From assembly GCF_041821045.1 (NCBI RefSeq), contig NZ_JBGUAW010000010.1, forward strand, positions 62,001 through 126,000: a DNA stretch of 64,000 bases, written 5' to 3'. The translations under genes and the position numbers were made by a program. Source of the DNA: Thiohalorhabdus sp. Cl-TMA (GTDB lineage: Bacteria; Pseudomonadota; Gammaproteobacteria; Thiohalorhabdales; Thiohalorhabdaceae). Each line of letters opens with the position of its first letter. Positions within the stretch are counted from its first letter, which is position 1. Of this stretch, positions 1,036-11,263 are shown piece after piece. Below the pieces are notes generated by a model. The model was not told the DNA's origin, searched no databases, and worked only from the letters and a program-made list of their open reading frames with translations.

Positions 1036-2517
1036 ATGAGCGTGCAGCGCGGCCCCGTTGCCCGGCGCCGAGCCGGCATCCTACTCCATCCCACCTCGCT
1101 ACCCGGTCCCCGGGAGAACGGTGACCTCGGCCCCGATGCCCACCGTTTCGTGGATTTCCTCGCGGAAGGGGGGCTCAGCGTCTGGCAGACCCTCCCGCTA
1201 GGCCCTACGCACGACGATGGCTCCCCCTACCAGTGCCTGTCCGCCCATGCGGGGAATCCGCGTCTGGTGGCCCTGGAGCCCCTGGCGGAGGCGGGTTGGC
1301 TGGACGGCGTTCCGGAACCGCCGGGCGATCGGGAGGATGCGGAGGCCCATACCTGGAAATGCCTGCGCAGCGCCCACGCCGGATTCCTGGAGCGCGCGGA
1401 CGGTGCGGCGTGGGAGGCCTTCGATGCGTTCTGCCGGGAGAAAGCCCACTGGCTGGAAGCCTACGCCCTGTTCATGGCCCTGCGCGGTGAAGGGGAGCGG
1501 CCCTGGTGGGAATGGTCGGCGCCGCTGCGGGACCGGAGGTCCGATGCCCTTGAAGAGGCCGCCGGCAGCCGATCCGGGGAGATGGCGCTCCATCGGTTCG
1601 TACAGTGGCAGTTCTTTGAGCAGTGGCGGGCGCTCAAGGACTACGCCAACGAGCGAGGCATCCTGCTTTTCGGGGACCTGCCCATCTTCGTGGCCCACGA
1701 CAGCGCCGAGGTGTGGGCCCACCGGGAGCTATTCGACCTCGACCAAGCGGGGAGCACGGCCACCGTAGCCGGAGTGCCCCCGGACTATTTCTCCGAGACG
1801 GGGCAGTACTGGGGCAATCCCCATTACCGCTGGGACCGTATCGCCGCGGACGGATACGCCTGGTGGATCGAGCGCATGCGTACCCAGCTGGAGCTGTTCG
1901 ACTGGGTGCGTATCGACCATTTCCGCGGCTTCGTGGCCTTCTGGGAGGTCCCGGAGGGACAGCCCGCCACGGAAGGGCGCTGGGTACAGGGGCCGGGAGC
2001 GGATTTCTTCCGCGCCCTGGAGGAGGCCCTGGGCGATCTTCCCTTGGTGGCCGAGGACCTGGGGGTGATCACCCCGGAGGTGACCGGACTCCGGGAGCGT
2101 TTCGGATTGCCCGGCATGAAGATCCTGCAGTTCGCCTTCGGCGGCGGCCCGGACAATCCCTATCTGCCGCACCACCACCAGCGGGACTTCGTGGTCTATA
2201 CCGGAACCCACGACAACAACACCACCCTGGGCTGGTGGCAGGAGGAGGTTTCCGGGGAGGTTCAGGAGGAAGTCCGGGAGTATCTGGGTTATCCCGGGGA
2301 GCCCGTACCCTGGCCGTTAGTGCGTGCCGCCCTGGCCTCGGTGGGACGGACGGCGGTGGTGCCCATGCAGGATCTCCTCGGGCTGGATGGCCGACACCGT
2401 ATGAATCAGCCGGCGACCATGGAGGGCAACTGGCAGTGGCGCTTCCGCTGGGAGTGGGTCCCGGAAGGGCTGGCTTCCCGGCTGGCGCGGCTGAACCGCC
2501 TTTATGACCGCACCTAA
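1036..2517 (+). CDS. malQ: 4-alpha-glucanotransferase (amylomaltase, GH77)
   Basis: Disproportionating enzyme that transfers alpha-1,4-glucan segments between maltodextrins or to glucose; cytoplasmic. The 493-residue length is normal for MalQ. Catalytic residues are in place: Asp294 in RIDHFRGF (nucleophile), Glu340 in VAEDLG (acid/base) and Asp393 in TGTHDNNTTLGWW (transition-state stabiliser), nearly the same numbers as in the Thermus enzyme. The N-terminal ILLHPTSLPGP is also typical. The ATG at 1036 is preferred over the in-frame ATG at 970 because 970 lies inside the GH57 gene and 1036 has GAAGGG about 9 nt upstream. It is co-directional with the GH57 gene and convergent with glgP, so the three enzymes probably handle the same glucan pool. 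Confidence 0.95.
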   Translation: MSVQRGPVARRRAGILLHPTSLPGPRENGDLGPDAHRFVDFLAEGGLSVWQTLPLGPTHDDGSPYQCLSAHAGNPRLVALEPLAEAGWLDGVPEPPGDREDAEAHTWKCLRSAHAGFLERADGAAWEAFDAFCREKAHWLEAYALFMALRGEGERPWWEWSAPLRDRRSDALEEAAGSRSGEMALHRFVQWQFFEQWRALKDYANERGILLFGDLPIFVAHDSAEVWAHRELFDLDQAGSTATVAGVPPDYFSETGQYWGNPHYRWDRIAADGYAWWIERMRTQLELFDWVRIDHFRGFVAFWEVPEGQPATEGRWVQGPGADFFRALEEALGDLPLVAEDLGVITPEVTGLRERFGLPGMKILQFAFGGGPDNPYLPHHHQRDFVVYTGTHDNNTTLGWWQEEVSGEVQEEVREYLGYPGEPVPWPLVRAALASVGRTAVVPMQDLLGLDGRHRMNQPATMEGNWQWRFRWEWVPEGLASRLARLNRLYDRT

Positions 2518-2574
2518 GGCGGAAGCCGAGACGCGTGGCTCCGGCGCTGTCCGCGCCAAGCGGCGTAAAATTTA

Positions 2575-2602
2575 TTGACAACCATGGTCTGTCGTTGATA
2601 AG
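2575..2602 (+). promoter_or_regulatory. Strong sigma-70-like promoter for an intergenic RNA
   Basis: Perfect -35 hexamer TTGACA at 2575-2580, a 16-nt spacer and a -10-like GATAAG at 2597-2602 (4 of 6 consensus positions), 57 bp after the malQ stop. No open reading frame with a ribosome binding site follows, and glgP is encoded on the other strand. A start near 2609 would give a transcript of about 70 nt ending at the terminator at 2677. This is assigned by consensus only. Confidence 0.55.
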
Positions 2603-2610
2603 TGACAGAC
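2587..2610. repeat. 7-bp inverted repeat spanning the -10 box (possible operator)
   Basis: GTCTGTC at 2587-2593 and GACAGAC at 2604-2610 are perfect inverted repeats with a 10-nt centre that contains the GATAAG -10-like box. The spacing and position fit a dimeric repressor operator over a promoter. If the region is transcribed by read-through from malQ, the same arms could form an RNA hairpin instead. Confidence 0.5.
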
Positions 2611-2678
2611 ACGGGCTGCGACCTCCCCAGATCCCGCAGTAGGGAAGTCCGCAAAGGGGTGGGGAGGTCGCCTTTTTC
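2609..2678 (+). ncRNA. Candidate small RNA between malQ and glgP
   Basis: A promoter, a region of about 70 nt without coding potential and an intrinsic terminator form a compact transcription unit. The predicted RNA is mostly one long stem, 2618-2628 paired with 2661-2671. It encloses a small hairpin (TCCC 2632-2635 with GGGA 2642-2645, loop GCAGTA) and an unpaired A/G-rich segment 2646-2660 (AGTCCGCAAAGGGGT) that could be a seed or protein-binding region. No known RNA family is recognised by eye. The alternative is that the stem is simply the malQ operon terminator. Confidence 0.45.
2618..2677 (+). terminator. Rho-independent terminator with 11-bp perfect stem
   Basis: GCGACCTCCCC (2618-2628) pairs perfectly with GGGGAGGTCGC (2661-2671) and is followed by CTTTTT (2672-2677). 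The U-tract exists only for the + strand, so it can end malQ-operon transcripts or the candidate small RNA but not glgP. The 32-nt loop is long for a plain terminator. Confidence 0.75.
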
Positions 2679-2699: not shown

Positions 2700-5267
2700 C
2701 TACAGCCAGAGCATGCGTCCGGTCTCGTGCAATTGCGCGAGATCGGGGTGATAGGGATACATCCGCAGCTTGTAGAACTGCAGCCCGGGCAGGGTCGGCT
2801 CCAGGTCCAGATGGAATAGGGTGGCGCCGTCCGGTCCCTTTTCCTCCAGATGCGCCAGTCCGTGGCGCTCCTGCGTATCGAAGCCGCCCAGCGCGTTCTC
2901 CCGGCCCACCAGGCATTCGACCCGCACGTCCTCCGGCGACAGTCCGTTCAGGTGCACGGCGACGGTGATGGGCAGCTTGTCGCCGCTGGTTAGCGTGTGC
3001 GGAAACCAGTCGAGCCGCTCCATCCGCACGCTGTCCCAGGCTTCGTTCACGCGCCGTTTCCAGCGCGCCAGCGCGCGGGCGGATTCCCCTTCGTTGCGCG
3101 CCAGGCGCCGCTGCTGACGGCTCGCCGGACCGTAGAAGTCCCGGACGTAGTCCATGAGCATGCGCTGGGCGTTGAAGCGCGGAATCTGGGACTTGATGGC
3201 GTTCTTGGACATCCGCACCCATTCCTGACTGTAGCCGTGCCCGTTGCGCCGGTAGTACCGCGGCACCACCTGGTCCTCGAGGAGCTCCATGAGCTCCTTG
3301 GACTCCTCCCGGTTGCGGTAGTCGCTGCTCATCTCCGGGTCGTGGGGCGTGATCGCCCAGCCGTTCTCGCCGTTGTAGCCCTCGCCCCACCAGCCATCGA
3401 GCACGGAAAGGTTCAAGCCGCCATTGATGCCGGCTTTCTGGCCCGAGGTGCCGCTGGCCTCCTTGGGATATTCCGGGGTATTGAGCCAGACATCCACACC
3501 CGTCACGAGCTTCCGGGCCAGGGCCACGTCGTAGCCTTCCAGGAAGATGATCTTGCCCTCGAACTCCGGGCGCCGCGAGAACTCGTGGATCACCTTGATG
3601 AGGTGCTGGCCGGGCTGGTCATTGGGGTGCGCCTTGCCGGAGAACAGAAACAGCACGGGGCGATCCGGGTCGTTGACCAGTCGCGCCAGACGGTCCGGGT
3701 CGGTGAACAGTAGGGTGGCCCGCTTGTAGGTGGCGAATCTGCGGGCGAAGCCCACCGTCAGGATATCGGTGCGATCCGGGGAAAGGTGCTCGGTGAGCCG
3801 CTCGATCTGGGCCTGCGTGGCACCGTTGCGGCGGTGCCGATGGATGAGTCGTTGGCGGGCCTCGGTGAAGAGCTCCGCTTTCAGGGTCTGCCGCAGACTC
3901 CAGAAGCTGTGGTCCTGGATCTGGTCCATGCCCTTCCAGAAGTCCTCGTTGAGGAGCTCGCTCCGCCACTGTCCGCCGAAGTGGAGATCGAAAAAGCTCA
4001 CCCATTCCCGGGCCAAGAAGGTGGGGACGTGTACGCCGTTGGTGACGTAGCCGATGGGGTTCTCCTCCATGGGAACCTCGGGCCAGATATAGCCCTCCAT
4101 CTCCGAGGCCACCCGGCCGTGAATCCGGCTCACCCCGTTCTGGTAGCGGGAGGTACGCATGGCCAGCGCCGTCATGTTGAAACCGCCGTCGCCGTGCAGC
4201 CCGCTCCGGCCGAGCCCCAGGAGCCAGTCCATTTCCGCGCCCAGCTCCTCCTCGACATAGGAGGCGAAATAGGTGCCCATGAGCTCGGGGTCGAATATAT
4301 CGTGACCCGCGGGTACCGGGGTGTGGGTGGTGAACACGGTGGCGCTCGCCGCGCGCTCCAGGGCGGTGTCCAGGTCCATGCCGCGGGCCAGGAGCTCGCG
4401 GCAGCGCTCCAGGGCCTGAAAGGCGGCATGCCCCTCGTTGATGTGCCAGACGGAGGGATTCAGCCCGAGGGCGCGCAGGGCACGGACACCGCCGATGCCC
4501 AGGACGATCTCCTGCTGAATACGGACGGTATTGTCGCCGCCGTACAACTGATAGGTGATGGACCGGTCCTGATCGTCGTTGTCGGGAAGGTCGGTGTCCA
4601 GCAGATAGATGGAGACGTGTCCCAGGCTTCCGCGCCAGATCCGTACCCGCACTTCGCGCCCGGGTAGCGGGGCGGTGATGTGGATTTCCTCGCCGTCCTC
4701 GTTGTGCACCGGCTCGATGGGCAAGTCGGCGAAATCGGTGGGGTTGTAGTGGGCCACCTGGTTGCCTTCCGCATCCACCGTCTGCACGAAGTAGCCCTGC
4801 CGGTAGAGGATCCCCACGGCCACCATGGGCAGGTGCATGTCGCTGGCGGCCTTGACCAGGTCCCCCGCCAGGATGCCCAGGCCGCCCGAGTACAGGGGCA
4901 GGCTCTCATGGAAGCCGAACTCGGCGCAGAAGTAGGCGATTAGGTCCTTGTCGTGGCTCAGATGCTCCTGAAGCTCGGAGCGCATGGGCTCCTTGTGGTA
5001 GCTGTCGAAGCTGGACAGTACCCGGTTGTACTCCTCCAGGAAGACCCGGTCCCGGGCCGCCTGCTCCAGACGGGACTGGCTGACACGGCGCAGGAAGATC
5101 TTGGGGTTGTGCCCGCAGCTCTCCCAGACCTCGTGGTCCAGCTGGTAGAAGAGTCCCCGGATGCGGCGGTCCCAGGTGTATTTGAAGTCGTTCGCCAGCT
5201 CACGCAGCCGGGCGAGATTCTCCGGGATTCGGGGCTGGACTTCCAGGCGGTAGCGGGTTCCGGGCAT
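2700..5267 (-). CDS. glgP: Alpha-glucan (glycogen/maltodextrin) phosphorylase, DUF3417 type
   Basis: Releases glucose-1-phosphate from alpha-1,4-glucan ends with pyridoxal phosphate; cytoplasmic. The 855 residues begin with the DUF3417 domain typical of this phosphorylase subfamily (region around TWDRRIRGLFYQLD), followed by the glycosyltransferase-like body (YSGGLGILAGD, YVTNGVHVPTF). The PLP lysine is Lys611 in GTSGQKAGINGG. The ATG at 5267 has AGGTAA about 10 nt upstream and a good promoter 40-70 nt upstream. It converges on malQ across the intergenic RNA region. Together with GH57 and MalQ it would degrade glycogen to G1P, a sugar that links to the sucrose synthase gene nearby. Confidence 0.95.
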   Translation of the reverse strand: MPGTRYRLEVQPRIPENLARLRELANDFKYTWDRRIRGLFYQLDHEVWESCGHNPKIFLRRVSQSRLEQAARDRVFLEEYNRVLSSFDSYHKEPMRSELQEHLSHDKDLIAYFCAEFGFHESLPLYSGGLGILAGDLVKAASDMHLPMVAVGILYRQGYFVQTVDAEGNQVAHYNPTDFADLPIEPVHNEDGEEIHITAPLPGREVRVRIWRGSLGHVSIYLLDTDLPDNDDQDRSITYQLYGGDNTVRIQQEIVLGIGGVRALRALGLNPSVWHINEGHAAFQALERCRELLARGMDLDTALERAASATVFTTHTPVPAGHDIFDPELMGTYFASYVEEELGAEMDWLLGLGRSGLHGDGGFNMTALAMRTSRYQNGVSRIHGRVASEMEGYIWPEVPMEENPIGYVTNGVHVPTFLAREWVSFFDLHFGGQWRSELLNEDFWKGMDQIQDHSFWSLRQTLKAELFTEARQRLIHRHRRNGATQAQIERLTEHLSPDRTDILTVGFARRFATYKRATLLFTDPDRLARLVNDPDRPVLFLFSGKAHPNDQPGQHLIKVIHEFSRRPEFEGKIIFLEGYDVALARKLVTGVDVWLNTPEYPKEASGTSGQKAGINGGLNLSVLDGWWGEGYNGENGWAITPHDPEMSSDYRNREESKELMELLEDQVVPRYYRRNGHGYSQEWVRMSKNAIKSQIPRFNAQRMLMDYVRDFYGPASRQQRRLARNEGESARALARWKRRVNEAWDSVRMERLDWFPHTLTSGDKLPITVAVHLNGLSPEDVRVECLVGRENALGGFDTQERHGLAHLEEKGPDGATLFHLDLEPTLPGLQFYKLRMYPYHPDLAQLHETGRMLWL

Positions 5268-8676: not shown

Positions 8677-8833
8677 GGCATAACCTCGGAATAAAGCTGG
8701 AAAAATTCCTGTCCGATTCCTTTTGGTCCAGGATGGGTGGATACTGAATTCGATTTGGAATGGGCTTGGACTGGGTGGCAACCTGCCTATTTGGGCTGTC
8801 GAGGCGCCTGTCGGGCGCAAAGGTGAGTGATTG

Positions 8834-11263
8834 GTGGATTCCCGGGTCAGAAACGGCATCCCCGTTGGGGCGCTCCCCCAATATCTGCATGAGCAGCGGG
8901 AGGACGTCTACCTCCTCCTGCGCCATTACCTGAGCCTGGAGCGCTCCTTTCTGCTTCATTCCGATCTGTGGGACGAGCTCGCGCAGTTCGCGGCGAGCAC
9001 TTCCCCGGGAATGGAGAAGAGCCCCCTGGCACGCATCATAGCCGTCGCCCAGGAGGCCGTGCTGGAGGCCCCCTGGATCTGTCTTTCCATCCGCCCGGCC
9101 ATCGCGACATGGGAATACCTGCGCTTCCATGTGGAAGAGGTAGAGTTCGAGGTCATTTCCGTGTCGGAGTTCCTCAAGTTCAAGGAACGGCAGGTGACCC
9201 GGCGGGATCCGGAGGAGGATTGGTGCCTGGAGGTGGACCTGGCGCCTTTTTCCCGGGAATTCCCCAAGCTGCAGGAAACCAGGTCCATCGGCCGGGGGGT
9301 GGAGTTCCTGAACCGGCGGCTTTCCAGCCAGCTGTTCCAGGACCTGGACGGGGGAGATCAGAGCCTGTTGCGCTTCCTGCGCCTCCATCAGTACCGCGGG
9401 CAGCAGCTCATGCTGAACGGCGGTATCCAGACCGTGGACGAGCTGCGGGCCGCGCTGCGGAGCGCGGAGCAGCGGCTCGCCAGGGAGGACCAGAGCGCGG
9501 GCTGGGCGCAGGTGGAGCATTACCTGTGGGATCTTGGTTTCGAGCCCGGGTGGGGCCGCGACGTGGCGCGCATCCGTGACACCCTGCACCTGCTCTCGGA
9601 TATCCTGGAGGCCCCGGAGCCCGCCACCCTGGAGCGGTTCCTGGGCCGCATCCCCATGATCTTCAATCTGGCGGTAATCTCCCCGCATGGCTTCTTCGGC
9701 CAGTCCAATGTGCTGGGCAAGCCCGATACGGGGGGCCAGGTGGTCTACATCCTGGATCAGGTGCGCGCCCTGGAATCCGAGATGCGGCAGCGCATCTGGG
9801 AGCAGGGCCTGGACATCGAGCCCAAGATCCGCATCCTGACCCGCCTCATCCCCGAGGCGGAGGGAACCACCTGCGACCAGCACCGGGAGCACGTCCTCTC
9901 CACTAAGTATACCCACATCCTGCGCGTTCCGTTCCGAACCGAACAGGGTGAAGTGGTGCCGCACTGGGTATCACGGTTCGAGGTATGGCCCTATCTGGAG
10001 CGGTTCACGGTGGAAGCGGAGAAGGAGCTCCTGGCGGAGCTGGGGGGCCGCCCGGACCTCATCATCGGCAACTACTCGGACGGCAACCTGGTGGCGACCC
10101 TGCTGGCCCAGCGTCTCCACGTGACCCAGTGCAATATCGCCCACGCCCTGGAAAAGCCCAAGCACCTCTACTCGGACCTGTTCTGGCGGGAAAACGAGGG
10201 CGAGTACCATTTCTCCGCGCAGTTCACGGCGGATTTAATCGGCATGAACGCCGCTGATTTCATCATCACCTCCACTTACCAGGAGATCGCCGGGGATGGT
10301 GAGTCCATGGGTCAGTACGAAAGCTATGAATCCTTTACAATGCCCGGCCTGTATCGAGTCCTGAACGGAATCGACATCTACGATCCCAAGTTCAATATCG
10401 TCTCTCCGGGGGCGGATTCCGAGGTGTATTTCCCCTACACGAATCGGGATCACCGGCTCACCGGGCTCCACGAAGAGATCCGGGAGCTGGTGTACGGCGG
10501 GGAGCGGGCCGATGCTCGGGGCAGCTTCGTGGATCCCGAAAAGCCCGTCCTGTTCACCCTGGCGCGGCTGGATCGCATAAAGAACATCACTGGCCTGGTT
10601 GAGTGGTTCGGGAGCAGCCCCCGGCTCCGGGGAGCGGCCAATCTGCTGGTGATCGCCGGACATGTGGATACCGCCCGGTCCGTGAATTGGGAGGAGCGGG
10701 CCCAGATCGAGCAGATGCACCAGCTCATGGACACCCACGATCTGGACGGCGAGGTGCGCTGGCTGGGTACGCACCTGGACAAGAATCTGGCCGGGGAGCT
10801 CTACCGGTACATCGCCGATAACGGCGGGGCCTTCGTGCAGCCCGCCCTGTTCGAGGCCTTCGGCCTCACCGTGATCGAGGCCATGACCTCCGGCCTACCC
10901 ACCTTCGCCACCGCCTACGGCGGGCCCCTGGAGATCATCCAGCACGGCCATTCCGGGTTTCACATCAACCCCAACCATGGGCAGCAGAGCGCTGACATCA
11001 TGGCCGATTTCCTGGAGCAGTGCGTCGCGGAGCCCGGTTATTGGACGCAGGTCTCGGAAGCGGCCATGGCCCGGGTCAAGGCCCGGTACACCTGGGAGCT
11101 GTACGCGGAGCGGATGATGACCCTTTCCCGCATCTACGGATTCTGGAAGTACGTGACCAACCTGGAGCGGGACGAGACGCGGCGGTACCTGGAGATGTTC
11201 TACGGTCTCCAGTTCAGGCCCCTGGCTCGGCATGTGGGGGAGGCCCGTGCCGAGGAGGAATGA
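8834..11263 (+). CDS. Sucrose synthase (GT4 family)
   Basis: Reversible conversion of sucrose plus NDP to NDP-glucose plus fructose; cytoplasmic. The 809 residues match bacterial and plant sucrose synthases: an N-terminal regulatory region (YLHEQREDVYLLLRHYL), the conserved ISPHGFFGQSNVLGKPDTGG near residue 285, and the GT-B sugar-nucleotide site ALFEAFGLTVIEAMTSGLP near residue 675. GTG 8834 is preferred over TTG 8831 because AGGTGA lies at about -8. No sucrose-phosphate synthase or phosphatase is adjacent, which favours the degradative direction that supplies ADP-glucose for glycogen, although this is inference. The gene is divergent from mltB and 24 bp ahead of the PhnD-like gene. Confidence 0.93.
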   Translation: MDSRVRNGIPVGALPQYLHEQREDVYLLLRHYLSLERSFLLHSDLWDELAQFAASTSPGMEKSPLARIIAVAQEAVLEAPWICLSIRPAIATWEYLRFHVEEVEFEVISVSEFLKFKERQVTRRDPEEDWCLEVDLAPFSREFPKLQETRSIGRGVEFLNRRLSSQLFQDLDGGDQSLLRFLRLHQYRGQQLMLNGGIQTVDELRAALRSAEQRLAREDQSAGWAQVEHYLWDLGFEPGWGRDVARIRDTLHLLSDILEAPEPATLERFLGRIPMIFNLAVISPHGFFGQSNVLGKPDTGGQVVYILDQVRALESEMRQRIWEQGLDIEPKIRILTRLIPEAEGTTCDQHREHVLSTKYTHILRVPFRTEQGEVVPHWVSRFEVWPYLERFTVEAEKELLAELGGRPDLIIGNYSDGNLVATLLAQRLHVTQCNIAHALEKPKHLYSDLFWRENEGEYHFSAQFTADLIGMNAADFIITSTYQEIAGDGESMGQYESYESFTMPGLYRVLNGIDIYDPKFNIVSPGADSEVYFPYTNRDHRLTGLHEEIRELVYGGERADARGSFVDPEKPVLFTLARLDRIKNITGLVEWFGSSPRLRGAANLLVIAGHVDTARSVNWEERAQIEQMHQLMDTHDLDGEVRWLGTHLDKNLAGELYRYIADNGGAFVQPALFEAFGLTVIEAMTSGLPTFATAYGGPLEIIQHGHSGFHINPNHGQQSADIMADFLEQCVAEPGYWTQVSEAAMARVKARYTWELYAERMMTLSRIYGFWKYVTNLERDETRRYLEMFYGLQFRPLARHVGEARAEEE

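What the first reader, a model, noticed from the sequence alone, without database searches (positions are those of the whole stretch)
2575..2678. Self-contained small-RNA unit between malQ and glgP with an operator-like dyad on its promoter
Within 104 bp the sequence shows a perfect TTGACA, a GATAAG box at 16 bp, a 7-bp perfect inverted repeat (GTCTGTC-N10-GACAGAC) centred on that -10 box, and about 70 nt later an 11-bp perfect stem with a U-tract. The product would be a ~70-nt RNA, one long stem enclosing a mini-hairpin and an exposed A/G-rich stretch. A strong, repressible promoter followed at once by a terminator, between two glucan-metabolism operons that converge there, is hard to explain by malQ termination alone. 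A regulatory RNA of glycogen or maltodextrin metabolism is a reasonable hypothesis.
Basis: partly seen in the sequence, partly recalled or inferred. Interest (0 to 1): 0.7.

Follow-up and report, generated by a model that had tools for sequence, protein, structure and literature searches.

The report
Candidate small-RNA gene in glycogen locus
Between two glycogen-metabolism genes lies a short stretch with a promoter-like signal, a protein-binding-like dyad and a conserved RNA hairpin, kept in one sister species but found nowhere else searched; it is probably a lineage-specific small-RNA gene, with no demonstrated function.

Summary
The described features are in the sequence at the stated coordinates. 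In 64 kb this is the only TTGACA with even a 4/6 -10 box, and the only perfect inverted repeat of 11 bp or more with a loop up to 40 nt. The whole block 2573-2676 is conserved (82/106 columns) in a congeneric genome, G001, at the same convergent malQ/glgP junction. Neutral (4-fold) sites in the two genes are only 55-57% identical, and the flanking spacer does not align. Conservation begins at the -35 box and ends at the hairpin's U-tract. The stem carries one compensatory A-U to G-C change.

Limits: the -10 box is weak, the outer dyad bases are not conserved, and G001 lacks a proper U-tract. The unit is single-copy, matches no Rfam family, and was not found in the third congener or in 366 other genomes of the class. 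It lies in a full glycogen locus (glgA-glgB / glgC-GH57-malQ / glgP). No Hfq was found in any of the three genomes of the genus, and no CsrA in the window's own. That disfavours an Hfq-type or Csr-type regulator. A genus-specific sRNA gene, whose hairpin also ends malQ, is the best reading. Targets and regulator are unknown.

The parts
2573..2581 (+). TATTGACAA, -35 element (TTGACA 2575-2580) with flanks
   Evidence: 9/9 identical in G001; only one of four TTGACA in 64 kb with a -10 match of at least 4/6
2597..2602 (+). GATAAG, putative -10 (16-bp spacing), 4/6 to consensus; TAAAAG in G001, also 4/6
   Evidence: weak, lacks final T
2587..2610 (.). operator-like dyad GTCTGTC-N10-GACAGAC centred on the -10; conserved core TGTC-N10-GACA (half-site AAGYGACA)
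   Evidence: core conserved in G001, outer bases not; only perfect site in the genome, one other site within 1 mismatch
2609..2677 (+). predicted ~69-nt RNA (5' end inferred)
   Evidence: fold z=-2.7; RNA part 55/70 columns identical to G001; single copy in genome
2618..2671 (+). 12-bp closing stem 2618-2629/2660-2671, one A-U to G-C compensatory change in G001
2632..2645 (+). mini-hairpin UCCC-GCAGUA-GGGA (UCCC-CCAGCA-GGGA in G001), followed by unpaired AGUCCGCAAAGGGG
   Evidence: RNAalifold consensus; competing single-sequence fold pairs UCCC with GGGG instead
2673..2677 (+). U-tract (T5) of an intrinsic terminator; degenerate (CTTTGGTTGT) in G001
1036..2517 (+). malQ, 4-alpha-glucanotransferase, upstream convergent gene (start codon inferred)
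   Evidence: NCBIfam NF011080 and TIGR00217 above cut-off
2700..5267 (-). glgP, alpha-glucan phosphorylase, convergent gene
   Evidence: TIGR02094 above cut-off

Best explanation
A genus-restricted small non-coding RNA gene of about 70 nt sits at the convergent malQ/glgP junction of a glycogen locus. Shown: a conserved -35 element, a conserved dyad core over the -10 region, and a conserved stem enclosing a mini-hairpin, with conservation bounded by the -35 box and the U-tract. Inferred: RNA polymerase starts near 2609 and stops near 2677; a dimeric DNA-binding protein on TGTC-N10-GACA overlaps the -10 and would repress; the same hairpin serves as the malQ terminator. Since no Hfq was found in the genus and no CsrA in this genome, the RNA more likely acts without them, either locally on the overlapping 3' ends of malQ and glgP or through another protein partner, than as a classical Hfq sRNA or Csr sponge.
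For: The block is conserved at the same junction in G001, 82/106 columns versus 55-57% at 4-fold sites. Flanks differ in length and do not align. The first 57 columns, from -35 into the stem, have no gap. There is one compensatory pair and the same consensus structure from RNAalifold. -35 box and hairpin are both exceptional in the window and within about 45 bp of each other. Indels of 1, 1 and 2 nt in the unpaired parts argue against a coding reading. The locus is a full glycogen cluster.
Against: Only one relative carries it. The -10 is weak in both species. In G001 the U-tract is poor, so a discrete 3' end there is doubtful. No expression data. No regulator, target or family.
Confidence: 0.55

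Rival explanations
1. Only the malQ 3' UTR and its intrinsic terminator: the hairpin ends the glgC-GH57-malQ transcript, and the TTGACA and dyad are chance or have another role.
For: Hairpin plus T5 directly after malQ and facing glgP; a convergent junction elsewhere holds a plain terminator (L066); the -10 box is weak.
Against: A terminator does not explain conservation of TATTGACAA and of the TGTC/GACA arms with fixed spacing upstream of the stem, nor the conserved loop; in G001 the U-tract, the part a terminator needs, is the part that is lost.
Confidence: 0.28
2. A cis-acting antisense or interference promoter: the + strand transcript opposes the 3' end of glgP mRNA, which shows no intrinsic terminator before the unit on its own strand, and tunes glgP/malQ by 3'-end pairing or polymerase collision, more so where the terminator leaks as in G001.
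For: Convergent layout; no U-tract follows the hairpin on the minus strand; weak U-tract in G001; antisense crosstalk between neighbouring genes has been reported for arfA and mscL (PMC10070815, title and abstract only).
Against: Does not need the conserved internal mini-hairpin; no data on where glgP transcripts end.
Confidence: 0.12
3. A CsrB/RsmZ-like or Hfq-dependent trans-acting sRNA of glycogen metabolism.
For: GGGA in the mini-hairpin; glycogen genes are classical Csr targets (general knowledge).
Against: No CsrA in the genome and no Hfq in any of three congeners although 324 of 369 genomes of the class have it; only one GGA in the mini-hairpin; no pairing signal to starts of glgA, glgB, glgC, GH57, malQ or glgP.
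Confidence: 0.05

Closest known systems
Stand-alone intergenic bacterial sRNA genes (general kind)
   Same: Own promoter-like signal, short structured RNA, Rho-independent-type end, conserved in a narrow lineage
   Different: Expression not shown; no Rfam match; no Hfq found in the organism; weak -10
CsrB/RsmZ Csr-sponge RNAs
   Same: Glycogen context, GGA-type motif in a hairpin
   Different: One motif instead of many; no CsrA found in the genome
Ordinary intrinsic terminator between convergent genes
   Same: GC stem and T-tract after malQ
   Different: 32-nt structured, conserved loop; conserved -35/dyad block upstream; U-tract lost in the sister species

Membership tests
Independent sRNA gene | Promoter at the 5' end | tested here: inconclusive
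   Perfect conserved -35; -10 only 4/6 in both species
Independent sRNA gene | Conserved RNA structure | tested here: met
   16/16 pairs kept in both species, one compensatory change; power very low with two sequences (274/500 shuffles as good)
Independent sRNA gene | Defined 3' end (intrinsic terminator) | tested here: inconclusive
   T5 in window, CTTTGGTTGT in G001
Independent sRNA gene | Discrete transcript expressed | not testable with these tools
   No RNA data
Known Rfam family | Match above gathering score | tested here: not met
   Best 17 bits against 43 for Scr2736
Csr sponge (CsrB/RsmZ) | CsrA present and multiple GGA hairpins | tested here: not met
   No PF02599 in the genome; one GGGA
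Hfq-dependent sRNA | Hfq present | tested here: not met
   No PF17209 in G000, G001 or G002
Repressor operator | Conserved palindrome overlapping the promoter with a cognate regulator | tested here: inconclusive
   Core TGTC-N10-GACA conserved, outer bases not; no regulator identified; one other near site in the genome

The most novel reading that the evidence does not exclude
A new, genus-specific sRNA dedicated to the glycogen locus, under its own repressor, working in a gammaproteobacterium-like lineage that has lost Hfq (and, in this genome, CsrA), and so through a protein-free or unknown-chaperone mechanism.
Probability: 0.17. Interest if true: 0.55.

Novelty: new member of a known kind. 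Interest (0 to 1): 0.36.

Why it matters
If expressed, it would be a small RNA built into a complete glycogen locus in a lineage where the two usual RNA regulators of carbon storage (Hfq, CsrA) were not found, giving a compact place to ask how carbon storage is tuned there. If it is only a terminator it is of local interest.

Tried and rejected
Rfam: nothing near threshold. DNA search of the class: two weak extra hits that look like coding sequence and are within chance for 369 genomes. Covariance model R1 over 369 class genomes: only the two founders; weak hits in G001/G002 at E 0.3-4 were inspected and look coding. Plasmid blastn: only short chance matches. Other copies of the promoter/dyad: one 2-mismatch hit in what looks like coding sequence and one 1-mismatch dyad elsewhere, the latter not followed up. 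Mobile repeat: rejected, single copy. Riboswitch or attenuator: rejected, no + strand gene follows. Short ORF: rejected, loop indels are 1, 1 and 2 nt. CsrA sponge and Hfq sRNA: rejected on absence of the proteins. Target pairing with glycogen gene starts: best z -2.5 among 14 tests, not significant. LexA (CTGT-N8-ACAG) and CRP (TGTGA-N6-TCACA) operators: spacing does not fit (general knowledge). TGT-N12-ACA resembles PpsR/CrtJ sites, a lead from memory only, untested. The guess that the organism is Thiohalorhabdus (from memory) was not confirmed.

Full report
Observation. In this 66% G+C window there are four TTGACA on both strands together, and only this one has a -10 match of at least 4/6. 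The hairpin is the only perfect inverted repeat with arms of 11 bp or more and a spacer up to 40. The 69-nt RNA folds at -33.5 kcal/mol, z -2.7. The 7-bp dyad alone would not be remarkable (196 such repeats with spacer 3-20 in 64 kb), and the -10 box is poor, so 'strong, repressible promoter' goes beyond the sequence.

Surroundings. The unit lies between malQ (stop 2515-2517) and glgP (stop 2700-2702, opposite strand). Extending upstream in the genome gives glgA and glgB on the minus strand, then glgC, a GH57 gene and malQ on the plus strand, then the unit, then glgP on the minus strand. It is therefore inside a complete glycogen synthesis and breakdown locus.

Conservation. Of the genomes held, only two others share the genus, family and order. 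One of them, G001, has the unit at the same junction. MalQ is 76% and GlgP 87% identical at the protein level, and 4-fold degenerate sites are 55% and 57% identical. The block from TATTGACAA to the CCTTT is identical at 82 of 106 columns, while the spacer before it (55 versus about 25 bp) and after it does not align. Within the block, the -35 with flanks is 9/9, the promoter spacer 2/8, the -10/dyad core 16/19 and the RNA 55/70; the first 57 columns have no gap. Assuming neutral identity of 0.56, the chance of 82/106 is about 4e-6. This takes columns as independent and the alignment as given, so it is a guide only. The -10 hexamer itself differs at two positions, while the arms TGTC and GACA on either side are unchanged. 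That is the best hint that the dyad core, not just the promoter, is under constraint. The outer dyad bases of the window are not kept.

RNA structure. RNAalifold on the two sequences returns the long stem and a mini-hairpin UCCC-NCAGNA-GGGA. One of 16 pairs changes on both sides (A-U to G-C) and none breaks. With two sequences this has almost no statistical weight. Single-sequence minimum-energy folds prefer pairing the inner CCC with GGGG, so the inner part may exist in two forms. In G001 the U-tract is CTTTGGTTGT, a poor terminator.

Distribution. The unit is single copy. It was not found in G002, where malQ is followed by other sequence (a tRNA gene and a small-protein gene by eye, not annotated with a tool) and not by glgP (that genome is 82% complete, so absence is not certain). 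It was not found in 366 further genomes of the class by DNA or by covariance model. Convergent malQ-glgP pairs are common in other gammaproteobacteria, but their gaps are mostly 12-226 bp and hold nothing, repeats, or a plain terminator. No Rfam family matches. So this looks like a genus-level novelty at an old junction.

Mechanism. The most economical reading is a small-RNA gene with its own promoter, possibly under a dimeric repressor, whose hairpin also ends malQ transcripts. Hfq was not found in any of the three congeners although 324 of 369 genomes sampled in the class have it, and CsrA was not found in the window's genome. This argues against the two standard models for such an RNA. Pairing of the exposed parts with starts of the glycogen genes gives no signal. 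A local role at the malQ/glgP 3' ends remains open. The chief rival is that only the malQ terminator is real. It fails to explain why the -35 and dyad arms are conserved while the U-tract is not.

Verdict.

Noticed in passing
whole genome G000 and congeners G001, G002: No Hfq (PF17209) in any of three congeneric genomes (two of them about 99% complete), while 324 of 369 genomes of the class have it; no CsrA (PF02599) in G000.
   Followed up: partly
L103:188-10000 (upstream of and into the window): Complete glycogen cluster glgA-glgB (minus) / glgC-GH57-malQ (plus) / glgP (minus), also syntenic in G001.
   Followed up: yes
8831-11263: Full-length sucrose synthase (TIGR02470) close to the glycogen locus.
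   Followed up: no
L013:4441-4666, L031:4307-4478: In other gammaproteobacteria the convergent malQ/glgP gap holds long, repeat-like inverted repeats, i.e. the junction tolerates insertions.
   Followed up: no
L066:4468-4545: A perfect bidirectional intrinsic terminator (GAAAAAGGGCCGGG...CCCGGCCCTTTTTC) at the same junction in another lineage.
   Followed up: no
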